DNA from: Halalkalirubrum salinum
Lineage (GTDB): Archaea; Halobacteriota; Halobacteria; Halobacteriales; Haloferacaceae
Length of the DNA stretch: 64,000 nt
NCBI RefSeq assembly: GCF_005543295.1
Contig: NZ_SRSG01000008.1
Span: 104,514 to 168,513, forward strand
Reading direction: 5' to 3'
The notes beneath the pieces are model-generated. The model searched no databases. It saw nothing but the letters and a program-made list of their open reading frames with translations, and was not told where the DNA came from. The position numbers and the translations under genes were made by a program. Positions 6,188 to 14,674 of this stretch are shown piece after piece. How positions within the stretch are numbered: the first letter of the stretch is position 1; every line of letters begins with the position of its first letter.

Positions 6188-6262
6188 CCCGCGGTCGGCT
6201 GCGTGTCTCGCGATCGACGATCGACGCGTCGCTCGTGAGATGAGCCGACCATTTAGATGTGC

Positions 6263-6892
6263 TTACTCGTTCGCGAACAGACTAATGTTTACAATCTCTG
6301 CCAAACTGAGGAGGTGGACTTGTCCGAAGATCGCAACCAGGATCGCACCAACCGAATTGAACATCACATCACGGACCGTGTCATCGAGTCCGTGCTGGGC
6401 AAGCGGCATCGTGATTCCAGTTTCGTTTGCAACAATGTCCAGCCCGAACTCGAACAACTCCCAGATGACGCCGAAGGCGAGAACCACAATGAGAATGTAG
6501 ACGAATGCAAACCGATTCGGGATATTGATGTCGTCGCTGTGGAGATCGATCGCCCGGGCAACCGTGTACCCTGCCCCCGCAATAAGCGAGGCAGACATCG
6601 CGTGCGTAAGGTGATCCCACCAGCCGATACGGGCGTACAACCCTGCAGACCCCATAGTGTGGAGAAATACGGCAACTGTGATCCACAGCGCAAGCCACGG
6701 GTCAAGTGGGAGGTTGTAGTTCCGCTCCAAAATTGCCGGCACAAATGTAATCAACAGCGCAATCCCACCGTTTGTGATCGCCTTCGGCTGGCTGAAAACC
6801 ACGCCGTATGCGACGATCGCAAGGAGGATCACCTGCATCAACCGGGTCAGCCGACGCTGATTGTGGATCCTTGGCCGTGGAAGCAGCGTCAT
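6263..6892 (-). CDS. Integral membrane protein, YjdF/DUF2238-like
   Basis: A 209-residue protein with about five hydrophobic helices. The motif GWWDHLTHAMSA (roughly residues 89-100), followed later by GVIWELFEFGLD, is typical of the DUF2238/YjdF membrane family, whose function is not established. The start ATG at 6892 overlaps the stop of the upstream membrane-protein gene in an ATGA arrangement, so the two are co-translated and perhaps form one complex. Confidence 0.8.
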   Translation of the reverse strand: MTLLPRPRIHNQRRLTRLMQVILLAIVAYGVVFSQPKAITNGGIALLITFVPAILERNYNLPLDPWLALWITVAVFLHTMGSAGLYARIGWWDHLTHAMSASLIAGAGYTVARAIDLHSDDINIPNRFAFVYILIVVLAFGVIWELFEFGLDIVANETGITMPLAQHGLDDTVRDVMFNSVGAILVAIFGQVHLLSLAEIVNISLFANE

Positions 6893-7530
6893 CCGCCGAC
6901 CACCCGACGAATCGCTCGACGGAGCTGTCTACCGCGGTGGCGGAAGTACGAGTCGAACAACACCCCTGCAGAGAGCCCAGCGAGGGTCACGTACATCCAC
7001 TCGATCATGAGTGCCTCGTTTGTCGTCAAAAAGTTCGTTCCGAGGAAGTTGTCCATGTTCCACCGCAGTATTGTCCACACCGCCACGACGGCCATCGTCG
7101 CCATCACGACGAATGCGACCGCAAACCAGTGGGTCAGCCGGACGGTGGTGAACATGTGGAGTTCGACAGTGACCAGAAGAGCGAGTCCTGCAACAGCGAA
7201 ATACGTGGCGAAGGTGCCGACATCACCGGCGAAAAGCCCGCGAACGAGGATCGGAAACAACGCGATTACGAGCACTTCCCACGGGAGCATCACGCGCCAG
7301 TCACGGTATGCGATCGGGGGCAGGAGCACAATCGCCCCGGTGGCGGTAACGAACACGATCCATTGGCGATCGAAGTCAATGACGCTTTCGCCCAGTACAG
7401 TAAGGAGAATACCAACGAGGACCCACGAGACGAGTGCATTGGTTCGCCCGCTTCGAAAGAGTCGGGCGAGGAGATCGTCTTCTCCTCTGTCCGGGCTCTT
7501 CCCGGTTCGACGCCCGCCGTTTTTGCCCAT
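6889..7530 (-). CDS. Integral membrane protein of unknown function
   Basis: A 213-residue protein starting MGKNGGRRTGKSP. A positively charged, probably cytoplasmic N-terminus is followed by about six transmembrane segments and a basic C-terminus (RHRGRQLRRAIRR), so both ends are probably inside. A GTG two codons upstream is possible, but the TATA-like box at 7554-7560 is best placed for the ATG at 7530. It is translationally coupled to the YjdF-like gene. I do not recognise the family. Confidence 0.75.
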   Translation of the reverse strand: MGKNGGRRTGKSPDRGEDDLLARLFRSGRTNALVSWVLVGILLTVLGESVIDFDRQWIVFVTATGAIVLLPPIAYRDWRVMLPWEVLVIALFPILVRGLFAGDVGTFATYFAVAGLALLVTVELHMFTTVRLTHWFAVAFVVMATMAVVAVWTILRWNMDNFLGTNFLTTNEALMIEWMYVTLAGLSAGVLFDSYFRHRGRQLRRAIRRVVGG

Positions 7531-7553
7531 GTACACTCACCAAAAGAGATACG

Positions 7554-7560
7554 AATATAA
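7554..7560 (-). promoter_or_regulatory. TATA-like box, leftward arm of a divergent promoter
   Basis: The minus-strand box TTATATT is 24-30 bp upstream of the ATG at 7530. It forms one half of a back-to-back promoter with the box at 7613-7618. Confidence 0.55.
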
Positions 7561-7612
7561 GTACGTGACTTCCCCCAAGAACCAATCTGTTCGGTCGGCT
7601 GAGTCGTCGGGC

Positions 7613-7618
7613 TTATAT
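7613..7618 (+). promoter_or_regulatory. TATA box, rightward arm of a divergent promoter
   Basis: The box ttatat is 24-29 bp before the ATG at 7642. Between box and start lies the inverted repeat ggtctc (7620-7625) / gagacc (7633-7638), a possible operator. Confidence 0.55.
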
Positions 7619-7641
7619 GGGTCTCAAGCCCAGAGACCGGT

Positions 7642-8241
7642 ATGATGCTTCCAACCCACGCGATCGTGGGGTTGGCTATAGCGACACCAGTCGCGTTCGT
7701 TGCCCCCGAGTTCACCGCGGCAGCATTAGCTGGCGGGCTCATTGGGGGCATATTCCCCGATCTAGACCTGTACGCGGGCCACCGTCGAACACTTCACTAT
7801 CCGACAATATACCCACTGCTCGCGCTGGCGGCGCTCATCTTGACAGTTGTGCGTCCGACACCGGTGACGGTCGCGATCGCATTTGCAATGATTGGCGCAG
7901 CAGTTCACTGTCAAATGGATCGATTTGGTGGCGGGCTTGAACTCCGACCGTGGGAAGGCGGCTCGGATCGCGCGGTGTATGATCACGTAAAGCGACGGTG
8001 GCGGCGGCCCAGACGGGTGATCCGGTACGATGGCGCTCCAGAGGATCTCGGACTCGCGTTGTTTCTCGGGCTCCCACTGGTAGTGGTACTCTCCCCGCCG
8101 TTTCGGTGGATCGTGCTCGCGCTGCTCGTGGTTGGGGGGAGCTATGTAATACTTCGGCGCCAACTGGCCGCCATTGCCCCGATCGTGTTTGGATACGTTC
8201 CCGCTCGCTTCGAACAGTACGTGCCCGAGCGCTATCGGTAA
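7642..8241 (+). CDS. YdjM-like membrane-bound metal-dependent hydrolase
   Basis: A 199-residue membrane protein of the YdjM (DUF457) family. The N-terminal LPTHAIVGLAIA and GGIFPDLDLYAGHRRTLHY segments supply the conserved His and Asp residues (H6, D44, D46, H51, H56 approximately) of this family of predicted metal-dependent membrane hydrolases. Four or five hydrophobic helices follow, and the C-terminal tail is basic. ATG ATG at the start leaves one residue of ambiguity. Its substrate is unknown. Confidence 0.8.
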   Translation: MMLPTHAIVGLAIATPVAFVAPEFTAAALAGGLIGGIFPDLDLYAGHRRTLHYPTIYPLLALAALILTVVRPTPVTVAIAFAMIGAAVHCQMDRFGGGLELRPWEGGSDRAVYDHVKRRWRRPRRVIRYDGAPEDLGLALFLGLPLVVVLSPPFRWIVLALLVVGGSYVILRRQLAAIAPIVFGYVPARFEQYVPERYR

Positions 8242-8320: not shown

Positions 8321-9382
8321 ATGCGAGCAGCAGTACTCGAAAGCCACGGGGAACCGCTCAAGATAACCGACGTTGACGCGCCCGATGTCACCCCTGACGG
8401 GGCTGTTGTTGCAGTCGATGCGTGTGGCATTTGTCGATCGGACTGGCACGGGTGGCAAGGTGACTGGGACTGGCTCGGTATCCAACCGCAACCGGGGCAG
8501 ATTCTGGGTCACGAACCAGCCGGCCGGGTAATTGCGGTCGGGGAAAACGTCGAAAATATTGATGAGGGCGACCACGTCGCGGTGCCGTTCAATCTCGGAG
8601 ACGGCACGTGCCCGCAGTGTCGTCGAGGGCACTCGAACACCTGCGAGAACGTCATGCCACTCGGGTTCGTCGAACCGGTGCAGGGGGCGTTCGCCGAAGA
8701 ACTCCACGTGCCAGCCGCAGACCACAACCTGGTCGAACTTCCCGACGGCGTCTCATCGGTCGACATGGCAGGGCTGGGCTGTCGGTTCATGACCTCGTTC
8801 CACGCGCTGGCCCACCGCGCAGACGTCGAAGCTGGCGACTGGCTCGTTGTCCACGGCTGTGGCGGTGTCGGGCTCTCTGCGGTCCACATTGGCGATGCAC
8901 TTGGTGCAAACGTGGTCGCCGTGGACTTGACCGACGAGAAGCTGCGAAAGGCTGAGGAGCTCGGTGCGGTTGAGACAGTCAACGCCGCCGAATACGACGA
9001 TGTCCCGGGAGCGGTCCAACAGACGATCGGCGGCGGTGCAGACATCAGCGTCGACGCGCTTGGTATCGCTGAGACCTGCCGGAACTCCGTTTTGAGTCTC
9101 GGTACTCGGGGCCAGCACGTTCAAATCGGTCTTACAACACAGGACGAAGAGGGCGTTGTCGGATTGCCGACAGATGCGATGGTGATGCAGGAGATCGAAT
9201 TCATCGGTTCGCTTGGGATGCCACCGACGCGATACGACGAGATTTTCCGAATGGTCGCGACGGACAAACTCAATCCGAGTGCAGTCGTCTCGAAGACTGT
9301 CGATCTCGGTGACGTAAATGACGAACTCGAGGCGATGACGGACTTCGGGACCGTCGGTATTCCAGTTATTGACTCCTTTTGA
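8321..9382 (+). CDS. Zinc-dependent alcohol dehydrogenase
   Basis: A 353-residue medium-chain NAD(P)-dependent alcohol dehydrogenase. Catalytic zinc ligands are C35 in ACGICRSDW and H64-E65 in GHEPAGR. The structural-zinc loop reads GDGTCPQC...C, with C97, C100 and C108 present and Asp (D94) where the first of the four cysteines normally sits. The coenzyme fold motif is HGCGGVGLSAVHI. The 80 bp upstream are strongly AT-rich, with candidate TATA sequences near 8264-8270 and 8288-8294. It is paralogous to the gene at 56275. Confidence 0.92.
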   Translation: MRAAVLESHGEPLKITDVDAPDVTPDGAVVAVDACGICRSDWHGWQGDWDWLGIQPQPGQILGHEPAGRVIAVGENVENIDEGDHVAVPFNLGDGTCPQCRRGHSNTCENVMPLGFVEPVQGAFAEELHVPAADHNLVELPDGVSSVDMAGLGCRFMTSFHALAHRADVEAGDWLVVHGCGGVGLSAVHIGDALGANVVAVDLTDEKLRKAEELGAVETVNAAEYDDVPGAVQQTIGGGADISVDALGIAETCRNSVLSLGTRGQHVQIGLTTQDEEGVVGLPTDAMVMQEIEFIGSLGMPPTRYDEIFRMVATDKLNPSAVVSKTVDLGDVNDELEAMTDFGTVGIPVIDSF

Positions 9383-9415
9383 GAGAGGAAACAGCCAAGT
9401 GCAGCGGTCGTTTTT

Positions 9416-12400
9416 ATGATGTATCACATGGCCGGCGGCACTCCTGACCAGCTGAACGCTCAATTAGACAGCGCCGAACGCGAACATCTCGAACATGTCG
9501 TCACCCAGCTGCGAGATCGCGTCGAAGATAACGTCCGATTCCAGCTCACACAGCATGGCCTCGACACCGAGCCCGCTGACACGGACGCCCTAGACGAGGA
9601 CACATCGTCGCTCGCTGAGGCGATCGAACTCGAAGCCGTCGACGACGAACCGTGGGCGGACGCGTTTGCACAGTACATTACGGGTGTGGGCTACACGATC
9701 GTCAACCGGTTAGCCGCGCTTCGATGTATGGAGGTGCGGGGGTTTGTTGCGGAGGAGGTCACCGTCTTCAAAGCGAACGGCTTGACACCGGCTGCGGAGA
9801 CACTCGTCTACGAGGAGTTTCTGTTAGCGGATGAAGCAATTTTGCAGGCGTACCACGACGCGTGTGATCGGCTGGCCGAAGAGATCGAAATTCTGTTCGA
9901 TCGATCATCCGCGTACAGCCTGATCGATCCTGACGACGACACCTTCGAAGAACTCTGTGGGATGCTCGATTCGGTTCCGAATGAGGTTTGGCGGGCAGAC
10001 GACGTGTTGGGATGGATTTACGAGTACTACAACCGCCCTGTCGTCGAGTCACTCGATGCAAAAAATACGCTCAACCCCGGGGATGTTGGTCCTGCTAATC
10101 AGTTCTACACGCCCCACTGGGTGGTTCGAATGCTCACGGACAACAGCCTCGGGAAGCTCTATCTCGAGGCGACCGGACAGGAGTCGACGGTCCCTGAACC
10201 AGCGGCGCTCACCCCCGAGGACCGCAAAAATCGCGTGGTCACGCCAGCAGACAGTCCGACCGTTTCTGCACTCTGTACGTATCTTATTCCGGACGAGGAA
10301 CCTGGCGACGCTCCAGCGTTCGATCATCCGTCTGAACTACGGGTCATCGACCCCGCTTGCGGGAGCGGTCATTTCCTTCTGTACGCGTTCGACGTGCTAG
10401 AGCGCATCTGGTGGGCTGAAACCGATCTCGATCGAGCCGAGATCCCAGCGAAGGTGCTTGAACACAACCTCTATGGCGTCGATATTGACCTGCGTTCGTG
10501 TCAGCTCTCGGCGTTCAATTTGTATCTCAAAGCCCGAACGCGTACTGAAAACGAAGACGGCCACTTCGAGATGCCCACCGTTGACATCGTCTGTGCGGAC
10601 GCCCGCGTGGCGGAGATAGAAGAGGCTACAAAAGTGTTAGATGACATTACCGGTGAGGGTAGTGACCTTCGTGAGGCGCTCGCAGAGATCATCGATACCT
10701 TCCAGCAAACGAACGCACTCGGGAGCCTACTTGACGTGAGCGGGACACTTGAGGGGGTATTCGAAAGCGGGCAAACGGGACTCTCAGATTGGAGTGATGG
10801 GACGCATCAGTCACTGAACTCGTTTTTCAAGGCGCTTCGCGAGGCCGTCGCTGAGCGCACATCAGAATCGTTCGGCGAGCAGAACCTCAGGAGTTTTCTC
10901 AGCCTGTTGATCGTATTGACTCAGAAATATGATGTTTCGCTTATGAATCCTCCGTACGGATCGGGTGGACGGATGCCAGATGATGTCCAAGCGTACGTCA
11001 CTGACCACTACGAATATATGACTGAGTATTATGTGAATTTCTTCGAGGCATGTGATCGACTGACTCGAAACGCGGGTCGAGTCGGAATGTTGGTTCCTCG
11101 ATCATTTTTATTTAATCAGACATTAGAGCCGTTTCGAGCCGATTTTATTGGACCAAGTGGGTCATTTGATTTTCTGGCCGAGTTCGGCTACGGGATCTTG
11201 GATAATGCAACGGTCGGCACAGCCGGTACGATCGTTCGAAGTGGGTCTGGCCAAGAAACGCTTGGCAATTTTATTCGACTACATGATGTCGAAAAAGGAC
11301 AAAAAGAACGCGTCTATCTCCATACCCTTTTCGAACGCGAACAACCCAGTGATGTGACGCGGTTTTTTGAAATTCCAGTTGCACAGTTCAACGACATCCC
11401 GGGCCGTTCTCTATGCTATTCGCTGCCACCAGCAATACGTCATCTGCATACAACTGAGCGAAAACTTGGCCGTGAGCATTCGGACACTGCTATTGCGGAT
11501 GTCAAACAGGGTCTCGCAAGCGGTAACAACGATCGGTTTCTGCGAAAGCATTGGGAAGCCCCGGCTGAGGAATTCCCGCCATTCACAAATGCCGGAGGGG
11601 ATGTGTGGGTACTCCCCGCTGTGGATGAAGTTATTGACTGGACTGATAGGGGGAGACGAATCAAGCGATACGCCGGAGCTCGGTTTCAAAATACACACTA
11701 TTACCGGAGAGAAGGACTGACATGGGCGTATATTAAACGGACTGGCCGCCGGTTTGGGTACTATCCAGGCGGTGGCCTCTTCGGACATGCCAGTAATATG
11801 GTTTTTTCAGAGGAAACGTCACTCTGGACGCTATTGGCTGCGCTAAATTCTGATATCTACCACGGCCTTATGTTATGTCTCACACCAGAGCGAAAGTGGG
11901 AGGCCGGGTATGTCGGGAAGTTACCGTGGTTTCGAGACATCGAGACGAACTGTAACGTGGATACGAAGGTACAAAAACAGCACAATCTGTTCATCAAACA
12001 GCGAGTATTTGACGTTCGAAGTCCGTATTATATTGGCCCAGCACTACTGCCACCATCCGCCGCTGCTGGGTTTTTTTACGATCACCACCATCAACAAAGC
12101 GCTTCGATAGATCCCAATGTGTTATTCGATACAGGGTGCCCGGAGGATTCACTCCTCGAACGCTGTCGGAACGCAATATCAGCCGCACGGGCCGATCGAA
12201 TTTGTATCGAAGCGCTCGCCGAAGACATAGACCAGTCAATCGCCGAAGCCTTGTCTATTAGCGAACAAACACGAGAACAACTAAAACAGGAAATCTGGCT
12301 TCGAACGGTCGAACAACCCGAAGATCGGCGCACTCCAGATCCCGCGGACGTACCGAACACGCCAGACGATTTCCCCGAGATGGTGAAAGCCCTCCTCCAC

Positions 12401-13603
12401 CATCTCACGCTCCGAATTGTCACCGAGAGCGATGACGGTATTGTCCCCATATCTAGTACACATACCAAACCACCGCTCTTCGACCGTCTCGAGGACGAAT
12501 TTAATACGGTCTTTGGGGAACACGCAAGTGACCGACTCAGAGAGGCTGATGCGGCACTTGGGACTCGGAGCGCTGCCGACGAAGCCTATCCGAACCTCCG
12601 GACATGGCTCGAAAATGATCTCTTCGAGTACCACGTCCAGGCGTTCGATCGTGTGCCGATCCTCTGGCGGGTGACGACCAAGCGGCTCGTCCCCGACCCT
12701 GAGGGGGAGGGTTTCGCCTGCTTGGTTGATTACCACCAGCTGGATTCAGGGCTATTCGACCGGCTCCAACGCTATCTCGAACCGCGCAAAGCTCTGCTAC
12801 GCGAAAAGCGCAGTGCGTCCAACCGGCGCCACAGCGACGACTCACTGTCGGCAACCGAAAAGGCCGCTGCCGAAGCCGAGTACGATCGCTGCGAAAGCGG
12901 CCTCGAACAGATCGCCGCCTTCGAAGATCGACTCGTCGAATTGGCCCAGCCCAATCCCCGCACGTGGTCCACTGAGAGCCGCCACCTCGCCACTGAGGCT
13001 GCCGATCTAGTCGCAGACTTCCGCGAGCAGGTGGCCGATCGGCTGTCACAACTAGACGCCCTCGCCGCGATGGACGACGTCGACATGGAGACACGCTTCA
13101 CGCCCACGTTCTACAGCACGATCGAGGACAACCGCGAGGAGTGGCTCGACGCACTGGCCGATCTTGAAGCGGCCTTCGACGCATACGCACGCGAGGGTTC
13201 CGAACCGGTCGAAGCCCATCTGTACGATCTCTTCATATATTATCACGACCTCGTCGGCACGACGCACTTTGCGAGCAACGGCATTCTGTTTATGAACTAC
13301 TACTTCAGACGGTTCGACGATGTCGGACAGGCACAGATCGGGAGCGGCGGAATTTCTGAACGCGAGCGGCTTCTTTTTGAACTGGCACGTGGACTCGACG
13401 CTTACGAATCACTCGCAGAGGCGATCGGCGACGCCTGCGATGAGTTAGCCGGGGATATTGCCACTAATTGGGCCGATCGCGCCCGCTCTGAGATCACCAC
13501 CGCCGGCTATCGCCCGAACCTCAAACACGGCGTTGCGATCAACATCACGCCGCTGGCTGCCGCGGAGATCGTCCCGAAAACGGTCGACGACACCGTCCTC
13601 TGA
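9416..13603 (+). CDS. pglX: Orphan BREX-type PglX adenine-specific DNA methyltransferase
   Basis: A 1,395-residue protein that matches the BREX (type 5-like) PglX/Eco57I class of N6-adenine methyltransferases. An N-terminal helical region (about 1-290) precedes AdoMet motif I DPACGSGHFLL near residue 311 and catalytic motif IV NPPYGSGG near 511. The remainder would hold target recognition and helical C-terminal parts. Start candidates are 9416, 9419 or 9428 (MAGGTPDQLN). No brxB, brxC, pglZ, helicase or nuclease gene lies nearby, so it is solitary. Roughly residues 500-1020 (10915-12480) are much richer in A+T than both ends, suggesting that this central part was exchanged or acquired separately. 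Its DNA target cannot be read. Confidence 0.85.
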   Translation: MMYHMAGGTPDQLNAQLDSAEREHLEHVVTQLRDRVEDNVRFQLTQHGLDTEPADTDALDEDTSSLAEAIELEAVDDEPWADAFAQYITGVGYTIVNRLAALRCMEVRGFVAEEVTVFKANGLTPAAETLVYEEFLLADEAILQAYHDACDRLAEEIEILFDRSSAYSLIDPDDDTFEELCGMLDSVPNEVWRADDVLGWIYEYYNRPVVESLDAKNTLNPGDVGPANQFYTPHWVVRMLTDNSLGKLYLEATGQESTVPEPAALTPEDRKNRVVTPADSPTVSALCTYLIPDEEPGDAPAFDHPSELRVIDPACGSGHFLLYAFDVLERIWWAETDLDRAEIPAKVLEHNLYGVDIDLRSCQLSAFNLYLKARTRTENEDGHFEMPTVDIVCADARVAEIEEATKVLDDITGEGSDLREALAEIIDTFQQTNALGSLLDVSGTLEGVFESGQTGLSDWSDGTHQSLNSFFKALREAVAERTSESFGEQNLRSFLSLLIVLTQKYDVSLMNPPYGSGGRMPDDVQAYVTDHYEYMTEYYVNFFEACDRLTRNAGRVGMLVPRSFLFNQTLEPFRADFIGPSGSFDFLAEFGYGILDNATVGTAGTIVRSGSGQETLGNFIRLHDVEKGQKERVYLHTLFEREQPSDVTRFFEIPVAQFNDIPGRSLCYSLPPAIRHLHTTERKLGREHSDTAIADVKQGLASGNNDRFLRKHWEAPAEEFPPFTNAGGDVWVLPAVDEVIDWTDRGRRIKRYAGARFQNTHYYRREGLTWAYIKRTGRRFGYYPGGGLFGHASNMVFSEETSLWTLLAALNSDIYHGLMLCLTPERKWEAGYVGKLPWFRDIETNCNVDTKVQKQHNLFIKQRVFDVRSPYYIGPALLPPSAAAGFFYDHHHQQSASIDPNVLFDTGCPEDSLLERCRNAISAARADRICIEALAEDIDQSIAEALSISEQTREQLKQEIWLRTVEQPEDRRTPDPADVPNTPDDFPEMVKALLHHLTLRIVTESDDGIVPISSTHTKPPLFDRLEDEFNTVFGEHASDRLREADAALGTRSAADEAYPNLRTWLENDLFEYHVQAFDRVPILWRVTTKRLVPDPEGEGFACLVDYHQLDSGLFDRLQRYLEPRKALLREKRSASNRRHSDDSLSATEKAAAEAEYDRCESGLEQIAAFEDRLVELAQPNPRTWSTESRHLATEAADLVADFREQVADRLSQLDALAAMDDVDMETRFTPTFYSTIEDNREEWLDALADLEAAFDAYAREGSEPVEAHLYDLFIYYHDLVGTTHFASNGILFMNYYFRRFDDVGQAQIGSGGISERERLLFELARGLDAYESLAEAIGDACDELAGDIATNWADRARSEITTAGYRPNLKHGVAINITPLAAAEIVPKTVDDTVL

Positions 13604-13630
13604 GTGCCGGCTGCCCTGTCAAAACCTCAT

Positions 13631-13676
13631 CAATGATACGATTCGTTGTAACGCATTGCAAACGCTACTATCATTG
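13631..13676. repeat. Inverted repeat between pglX and the DUF6293 gene
   Basis: caatgata (13631-13638) and tatcattg (13669-13676) are perfect inverted arms 30 bp apart, with the small palindrome cgttgtaacg between them. They lie just after the pglX stop and about 60 bp before the TATA-like box of the next gene. They could be an operator or a terminator stem. Confidence 0.4.
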
Positions 13677-13732
13677 CCGCGACGAGGATTCGACGTGCCG
13701 ATCTCATCAGACGGTTCCGCTTTATCCGTCCA

Positions 13733-13740
13733 TTTTACTA
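13733..13740 (+). promoter_or_regulatory. TATA-like box for the DUF6293 gene
   Basis: ttttacta is placed 23-30 bp before the ATG at 13763. It supports that start over the in-frame ATG at 13742. Confidence 0.5.
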
Positions 13741-13762
13741 GTTGCCAGTCATTGTCCCACGT

Positions 13763-14670
<908 letters not shown>

Positions 14671-14674
<4 letters not shown>

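What the first reader, a model, noticed from the sequence alone, without database searches (positions are those of the whole stretch)
10915..12480. Low-GC mosaic block inside the pglX gene
Hand counts of 60-base lines give 37% (11101-11160), 52% (11161-11220) and 47% (11341-11400) GC, against 67% (9541-9600) and 68% (13021-13080) in the flanking parts of the same gene. Codon choice also changes (tat, ttt, aat, att common), and the genome-wide CGATCG signature falls to 3 copies in 1,580 bp. The block covers about residues 500-1020, starting just before the NPPY motif. This suggests that the target-recognition part was swapped by recombination, as PglX is known to undergo in some bacteria.
Basis: partly seen in the sequence, partly recalled or inferred. 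Interest (0 to 1): 0.75.

Follow-up and report, generated by a model that had tools for sequence, protein, structure and literature searches.

The report
Swappable DNA-targeting block in archaeal PglX
The middle third of this salt-loving archaeon's phage-defence methylation gene is distinctly AT-richer than its two ends, and relatives of the gene whose ends are over 99% identical can have middles only 39-53% identical, so this part is likely a block traded whole between genes by recombination, which would change the DNA word that the defence reads.

Summary
In pglX (9416-13603, 1395 aa) third-position GC is 65% and 69% at the ends and 45% in codons 500-975 (10913-12340); a two-breakpoint fit scores 31, the best of 60 shuffles 8.6.

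The protein is a BREX-5 PglX. Relatives show an exchange unit: five pairs with ends over 99% identical have 39-53% identical middles; fitted edges start just behind the catalytic NPPY motif (511-514) and end near the spacer helices (959-1029). Nine DNA pairs with 84-93% identical ends have 50-60% identical middles. A predicted structure puts the recognition domain in the block.

The dip is not private to this gene: 43 of 48 BREX-embedded copies with GC-rich ends have it; of 11 other stand-alone copies 1 has it.

The window copy stands alone: no BREX-5 core hit in the window; the only BREX-5 phosphatase hit is on contig C26, beside a second pglX. It is likely an extra specificity factor for that system. 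Four genomes whose in-cluster pglX is missing or a stub keep a full copy elsewhere. No donor, and no near relative of this copy with another middle, was found. No methylation was measured.

The parts
9416..13603 (+). pglX, BREX-5 type adenine-specific DNA methyltransferase and specificity factor, 1395 aa, stand-alone copy
   Evidence: NCBIfam NF033454 2246 bits, cut-off 900; PADLOC PglX 2138 bits; no BREX-5 core gene hit in the 64 kb window
10349..10369 (+). methylase motif I (SAM binding), residues 312-318, in the conserved GC-rich first part
   Evidence: invariant columns in alignment A1; role from PMC11341690 (passages)
10946..10957 (+). motif IV NPPY, residues 511-514: left edge of the exchange unit
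   Evidence: sequence; aligned to NPPY of solved PglX; GC3 breakpoints of 42 copies, median 513; protein breakpoints median 517
10913..12340 (+). low-GC3 block of the window copy, residues 500-975
   Evidence: two-breakpoint fit, gain 31.0 against at most 8.6 in 60 shuffles
11417..12001 (+). target recognition domain, about residues 668-862
12152..12304 (+). predicted spacer helices, residues 913-963: right end of the exchange unit lies here or just after
   Evidence: helices of the model; breakpoint ends median 986.5 and 1006
12428..12448 (+). conserved SDDGIVP segment, residues 1005-1011, start of the conserved GC-rich last part
   Evidence: aligned to the like segment of E. coli and Salmonella PglX, a weak second stretch (i-Evalue 0.02-0.1)
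8321..9382 (+). left neighbour, alcohol dehydrogenase; left end of the synteny break
   Evidence: Pfam; 93.8% to sister species G001 up to 9384
13742..14674 (+). right neighbour, HFX_2341/CARF-like protein; right end of the synteny break
   Evidence: PADLOC and Pfam; matches G001 from 13758, about 120 kb away from the left neighbour there

Best explanation
The low-GC block is likely a specificity cassette of a BREX-5 PglX methylase, from just behind the NPPY motif through the predicted recognition domain to the predicted spacer helices, and it was likely brought in as one piece by homologous recombination in the conserved sequence on either side. Shown for the family: ends and middle have different histories, with breakpoints clustered at the same two places. 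Inferred for this copy: its middle was replaced too, because it has the same composition step at the same two places. Inferred: such cassettes keep moving between hosts, so they do not take on the host's GC, whereas copies whose middle stays put do. Inferred: the stand-alone window copy works in trans with the BREX-5 proteins encoded on contig C26 and gives that system a second DNA word to mark and defend by.
For: Protein pairs (229 proteins, 26,106 pairs): of 8 pairs with both ends at least 98% identical, 5 have middles of 39-53% and 3 of 100%; of 12 with both ends at least 95%, 7 have middles of 60% or less. P0095/P0170 are 99.6/42.3/100, P0042/P0063 100/53.1/99.7, P0213/P0214 100/39.0/99.2. 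Fitted edges in 217 pairs: start median 517 (quartiles 516-523), end 1006 (959-1029). GC3 breakpoints of 42 copies, from composition, not identity: medians 513 and 986.5. In 3804 pairs with N ends at least 80% identical, N tracks C (rho 0.68) but not the middle (0.09). Forcing an end tree on the middle costs 6317-6513 log units, one end tree on the other end 945-1150. DNA: 9 of 14 pairs with like ends have middles of 50-60%. In 48 embedded copies with GC-rich ends GC3 medians are 76/52/76, core BREX genes 68-80; the middle is below every other listed gene of its locus in 44 of 48. The model places the recognition domain in the block. G000 has a BREX-5 PglZ hit only on C26, beside BrxB, two BrxC and a helicase. 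BrxX alone does not methylate and needs BrxB, BrxC and PglZ (PMC11842806, passages; E. coli).
Against: No relative with near-identical ends and another middle was found for the window copy (best N end 81%); no donor. The dip is near-universal in embedded copies, so it does not date a swap here. The five closest pairs come from three groups only (P0021/P0042/P0063, P0095/P0170, P0213/P0214). The contrast with stand-alone copies (median drop 21.7 against 3.2 points, n = 62 and 11) rests on 4 to 7 origins on the tree and is not significant by independent pairs. The window copy is itself a stand-alone copy with a dip, against that rule. Nine embedded copies with end GC3 under 55% have drops of only -3 to 11 points. 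The two ends also disagree with each other (10 of 71 splits shared), so exchange is not confined to the middle. Edges spread: 5-95% range 447-609 for starts and 951-1040 for ends. Function in trans and any change of DNA word are untested.
Confidence: 0.77

Rival explanations
1. The middle was never exchanged: it only evolves faster under pressure from phages, and its low GC3 follows from relaxed codon selection.
For: The middle is the most variable part on average over all pairs and recognition domains are known to diverge fast (PMC12839542, passage).
Against: Five pairs with ends over 99% identical and 39-53% identical middles are hard to get by faster point mutation alone; edges are sharp and cluster at the same codons; tree conflict is about five times that between the ends; most stand-alone copies of the same family keep host-like GC3 in the middle.
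Confidence: 0.06
2. The whole gene is foreign and came in one piece from a donor whose pglX already had the dip; nothing was swapped since it entered this genome. (Compatible with the best explanation, so the odds overlap.)
For: Both ends are also lower in GC3 (65-69%) than the window's other long ORFs (median 74%); the gene sits alone at a synteny break and was not found in the sister species; embedded pglX genes elsewhere carry the dip.
Against: Not in conflict with exchange in the donor lineage; it only moves the swap to an earlier host.
Confidence: 0.5
3. The dip is kept by selection on the DNA or mRNA of the recognition part, for example for slow translation or a regulatory signal.
For: It recurs at one place in many hosts: 43 of 48 embedded copies with GC-rich ends.
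Against: 10 of 11 stand-alone homologues lack it, also beside a dipped copy in the same genome (G071, G168, G067); centre GC3 follows end GC3 weakly in embedded copies (slope 0.36) and strongly in stand-alone ones (1.52, n = 11).
Confidence: 0.07
4. A local switch (phase variation by inversion or slippage) exchanges the middle within the cell.
For: Phase variation of pglX is described as common (PMC11341690, passage).
Against: No repeats frame the block: two imperfect 20-base inverted pairs do not match its edges; no simple-sequence tract apart from one T7; no spare cassette found in the genome, only two full pglX; no recombinase among the ten neighbouring ORFs scanned.
Confidence: 0.04

Closest known systems
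BREX type 1 PglX/BrxX of Salmonella and E. coli (8c45, 8q56, 9ewz, 8zek)
   Different: Archaeal BREX-5 family (NF033454), 170-190 residues longer; the window copy stands outside a BREX cluster. Recombination of the middle was not described in the passages seen of PMC11341690 and PMC11842806; a passage of PMC9009780 notes divergence within pglX between E. coli and Salmonella.
modA DNA recognition domain exchange in Neisseria and Haemophilus (PMC3311624, passages)
   Same: Recognition domain replaced en bloc between conserved ends; the recognition domain of modA12 has lower GC than both ends, taken there as a sign of transfer.
   Different: Phase-variable Type III methylase of bacteria; here BREX of archaea, no such tracts, and the unit includes half of the methylase domain.
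Domain movement of recognition domains in Helicobacter pylori (PMC3077401 listing; PMC3983042 abstract)
   Same: Coding sequence of recognition domains moves between genes and changes the methylated word.
   Different: Type I specificity genes and others; movement also within a gene, which I did not look for here.
Orphan DNA methylases of Halobacteria (PMC6471742, passages)
   Same: Methylase gene without its partner genes in a haloarchaeon.
   Different: The conserved ones there are CTAG and GATC methylases; that text does not mention PglX or BREX (0 occurrences). E. coli BrxX needs partners to methylate, so this copy is probably not self-sufficient.

Membership tests
BREX-5 PglX protein family (NF033454) | score over NCBI's curated cut-off over the full length | tested here: met
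   2246 bits, cut-off 900, residues 12-1395 on 6-1404 of 1404
BREX-5 PglX protein family (NF033454) | gamma-class adenine methylase motifs I and IV (NPPY) | tested here: met
   DPACGSG 312-318 and NPPY 511-514 invariant in 53 sequences
BREX-5 PglX protein family (NF033454) | PglX fold: methylase, recognition domain, spacer, C-terminal part | tested here: met
BREX type 5 system as a gene cluster | BrxA, BrxB, BrxC, PglZ and helicase beside pglX | tested here: not met
   no core hit in the 64 kb window or in 98514-118513 of the contig; cluster with its own pglX on C26
BREX type 5 system as a gene cluster | site-specific N6-adenine methylation and phage exclusion | not testable with these tools
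   needs methylome and infection data
Recognition-domain exchange by recombination | relatives with near-identical ends and unlike recognition part | tested here: met
   family level:
Recognition-domain exchange by recombination | the same, for the window copy itself | tested here: inconclusive
   nearest relative by N end 81%
Recognition-domain exchange by recombination | methylated word changes with the exchanged part | not testable with these tools
   no methylation data
Phase-variable pglX | repeats, tracts or recombinase and spare cassettes at the gene | tested here: not met

The most novel reading that the evidence does not exclude
In haloarchaea PglX behaves as a free specificity subunit: one BrxA-BrxB-BrxC-PglZ core is served both by an in-cluster pglX that draws on a pool of AT-rich, travelling cassettes (NPPY to spacer) and by solo pglX genes elsewhere in the genome. 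In some clusters the in-cluster pglX has shrunk to a 120-135 aa stub that keeps only both tips, so that the solo gene is the sole source of PglX, much as a Type I system takes specificity subunits from elsewhere.
Probability: 0.35. Interest if true: 0.72.

Novelty: new variant of a known kind. Interest (0 to 1): 0.55.

Why it matters
It defines, from natural breakpoints, the piece of PglX that evolution exchanges as one unit; published loop grafts from E. fergusonii into E. coli BrxX lost defence (three hybrids; PMC11842806, passage), so the natural edges suggest where functional chimeras should be cut. It also gives a cheap sequence mark (a GC3 step at NPPY) for cassette traffic, and suggests that one BREX core may take PglX from more than one gene, which can be tested directly by methylome sequencing.

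Tried and rejected
The genome contigs and viral-contig scans gave one locus (already found) and none, so DNA came from the genome search. The partner of the best near-identical-end pair (P0042) was not among the 32 genomes searched of its genus, so exact DNA junctions of that pair could not be read; nine less close DNA pairs were used instead. A donor for the window's middle was sought by a search with residues 500-1010: best 66%, no donor. Among plasmid records the nearest homologue is on Natrinema sp. J7-2 plasmid pJ7-1, inside a full BREX-5 cluster (68%). Testing the stand-alone/dip link on the tree was under-powered. Reading ORF 6257-7645 (+) as a gene was rejected: basic, and nearly all listed homologous stretches hold stops, so it is likely the wrong strand. 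G100's divergent cluster without pglX was left aside. Structure search: families not listed there are not excluded.

Literature: searches PglX+BREX+recombination+specificity, BREX+haloarchaea+pglX, target recognition domain+recombination+methyltransferase+haloarchaea, BREX+pglX+phase variation+recombinase, recognition domain+GC content and others, BREX+type 5+archaea+pglX, PglX+target recognition domain+diversity. In the listings and passages I saw no description of PglX cassette exchange in haloarchaea, of its GC step, or of solo pglX genes; I did not read these papers whole, and most subscription papers are not held, among them the 2015 BREX paper (recalled) and a 2015 Antarctic haloarchaea paper that PMC9716671 cites for like observations on pglX.

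Rows dropped before counts: 15 partial or interrupted pglX pieces before the 74 full copies; 12 proteins outside 1330-1470 aa and the duplicate P0002 before the 229 (209 of 222 kept, 20 locus proteins added); P0054/L054 in the pair counts are one gene counted twice. The 222 proteins come from one search by the middle and one by the first 500 residues, the best 120 rows of each, so pair counts are not a random sample. Of the order-wide matches (58 of 392 genomes at E 1e-100) I fetched 40 regions, not all. The 11-point limit for a dip and the end-GC3 limit of 65% were set after I had seen the values; the 42 copies with fitted GC3 breakpoints were chosen for a drop of 15 points or more (the window's included).
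Full report
WHAT IS THERE. ORF 9416-13603 (+), 1395 aa, is a BREX-5 PglX: NCBIfam NF033454, 2246 bits against a cut-off of 900, and PADLOC PglX. GC3 is 65.5, 45.5 and 69.2% in residues 1-499, 500-976 and 977-1395, against a median of 74% in 20 other long ORFs taken as genes. A two-breakpoint fit gives residues 500-975, gain 31.0; 60 codon shuffles reach at most 8.6.

IT IS AN EXCHANGE UNIT. Family search: 88 of 170 genomes match at E 0.001, many by the methylase motif alone. In 31 full copies (the window's included) identity to the window is mostly about 30-50% in residues 601-1000 and mostly 40-90% in the ends. Among 229 proteins (26,106 pairs) 12 pairs have both ends at least 95% identical; 7 of these have middles of 60% or less, 3 of 85% or more (one of the 3, P0054/L054, is one gene counted twice). 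At 98% or more there are 8 pairs, 5 with middles of 39-53% and 3 of 100%: P0095/P0170 (99.6/42.3/100), P0213/P0214 (100/39.0/99.2), and three pairs among P0021, P0042 and P0063 (52.7-53.1). In 217 pairs with ends at least 90 and 85% and middles of 70% or less, the fitted block starts at 517 (median; quartiles 516-523; 5-95% 447-609) and ends at 1006 (959-1029; 951-1040). GC3 breakpoints of 42 copies, chosen for a drop of 15 points or more, have medians of 513 and 986.5 (quartiles 474-525 and 974-1011). For 3804 pairs with N ends at least 80% identical rho is 0.68 for N against C and 0.09 for N against the middle. For the window row alone the ranks are not informative, as it has no close relative. 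On 74 copies the middle rejects the end trees by 6317 and 6513 log units; the ends reject each other by 945 and 1150, so some exchange also separates the ends (1000 resamplings, which the program calls too few for exact AU values). At DNA level 14 pairs have alike ends (N over 86%, C over 84%); 9 have middles of 50-60%, two of 66-72%, three of 95-99%. L105 and L105b lie in one genome (G403), on either side of the same pglZ.

THE GC STEP. Of 74 full copies 62 have two or more BREX-5 core genes in the fetched locus, mostly 7-10 kb to each side. In the 48 of them with end GC3 of at least 65%, medians are 76/52/76 and core BREX genes 68-80 (a further, non-core gene found in 5 loci has 52); the middle lies below every other listed gene of its locus in 44 of 48; 43 of 48 show a drop of 11 points or more, the five others being L103b, L104b, L106b, L051 and L115. 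Of 14 embedded copies with lower end GC3, nine with ends under 55% drop by -3 to 11 points. Twelve copies have no core gene near: the window's (drop 21) and 11 others (median 3.2, range -2 to 14; 1 of 11 at 11 or more). Middle GC3 follows end GC3 weakly in embedded copies (slope 0.36) and strongly in the 11 (1.52). In one stand-alone lineage (L038, L041-L044) middles are 47-72% and ends 65-77% identical, so coupling there is partial: L038/L041 77/72/73, L043/L042 74/47/72. The copies L103b/L104b/L106b, whose middles stayed together (95-99% at DNA level), have small drops of 8-9 points. I read this as: cassettes in traffic stay AT-rich, settled ones take on the host's GC. The link to stand-alone status rests on 4 to 7 origins and 2 supported independent pairs, so it is suggestive only.

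WHERE THE WINDOW COPY STANDS. No BREX-5 core gene hit lies in the window or in contig bases 98514-118513. The only BREX-5 PglZ hit of the genome is on C26, in a cluster with BrxB, two BrxC, a DrmD-like helicase and its own pglX, 61% identical to the window's, 30-36% in residues 601-1000. In the sister genome G001 neither pglX nor PglZ was found; there the left and right neighbours of the window gene lie about 120 kb apart, and the sequence that follows the left neighbour in G001 lies inverted at C62:142756-145610 in G000. So the gene sits at a rearrangement junction; an assembly join there is not excluded.

STAND-ALONE COPIES AND BREX. The 11 other stand-alone copies lie in 9 genomes; 8 of the 9, and G000, have a BREX-5 PglZ elsewhere. 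In the family 27 of 167 genomes have it over the cut-off, including all 8 in which I had classified a stand-alone copy. Of the 12 genomes of genus g17 listed (Haloplanus by matching named records), the 5 with stand-alone copies have PglZ and none of the 7 others appears over the cut-off (its list of misses is cut; G076 has a fragment under the cut-off). Neighbours differ for most stand-alone copies; L041 and L048 share some, and L038 has a phage-type integrase gene 263 bp downstream, L041 a relative of it 3.3 kb downstream, a possible vehicle. In four genomes the cluster lacks a full pglX: G137 and G313 keep in-frame stubs of 120 and 135 aa made of about the first 45-60 and last 70-95 residues, right before pglZ; G070 keeps about the last 80-120; G068 shows none; only short pieces of the helicase gene match in all four. 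Each has a full stand-alone pglX. A stub relative exists in a second Haladaptatus (P0225, 87% over the full length); most of the other hits of that search (67 in all, the two stubs themselves included) match one end only. This fits supply of PglX in trans, but also decaying clusters.

MECHANISM AND NOVELTY. Most likely: homologous recombination in the conserved sequence around NPPY and around residues 960-1030 replaces the cassette and with it the DNA word. Recognition-domain exchange is an old theme (modA, H. pylori); low GC of the exchanged part was noted for modA12 (PMC3311624, passages). New here, as far as my searches show (listings and passages only), are its presence and edges in archaeal BREX-5 PglX, the family-wide GC step, and solo pglX genes alongside stubbed clusters.

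Noticed in passing
L069:7368-7730 (G137) and L168:10464-10871 (G313): In-frame stubs of pglX that keep only the two tips, directly upstream of pglZ, in two distant genomes with a full pglX elsewhere; only short pieces of brxHII match there too.
   Followed up: partly
L070:7723-8072 (G070) and L167:12510-13483 (G068): BREX-5 clusters with only the last part of pglX, or none, between brxC and pglZ; full stand-alone pglX elsewhere in both genomes.
   Followed up: partly
window 9384-13758: pglX fills a synteny junction: left and right neighbours lie about 120 kb apart in the sister species, and what follows the left one there lies inverted about 30 kb away here.
   Followed up: partly
L038:6425-7432 (-) and L041:3176-4294 (-): Phage-type integrase genes downstream of two stand-alone pglX genes (Pfam PF00589).
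   Followed up: partly
L059, L138, L139, L141; plasmid NC_021913.1: Several pglX copies are split in two by about 0.15-1.6 kb; an IS66 family transposase is annotated at the Halorhabdus tiamatea one.
   Followed up: no
L065:88-3072 and L066:7525-8853 (G039): pglX split at residue 986, the right edge of the exchange unit, with the pieces some 19 kb apart if the contig is circular.
   Followed up: no
L034, L045, L134: L034 and L045 have a different first 200 residues (45-55% to the window) and L134 groups with them on the end tree: perhaps a second exchangeable part.
   Followed up: no
proteins P0188 and P0221: N end 93%, middle 100%, C end 55% identical: the last part may be exchanged as well.
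   Followed up: no
L032:10597-11616: A 339-aa ORF without an NCBIfam match between brxC and pglX, found in few clusters, also with low GC3 (median 52% in the 5 loci counted).
   Followed up: no
window 6257-7645 (+): A 462-codon open frame that is likely the wrong strand of a conserved gene (basic composition, stops in homologous stretches of other genomes).
   Followed up: partly
L177 (G100): A divergent BREX-5-like cluster with brxC directly followed by pglZ and no pglX hit between them.
   Followed up: no
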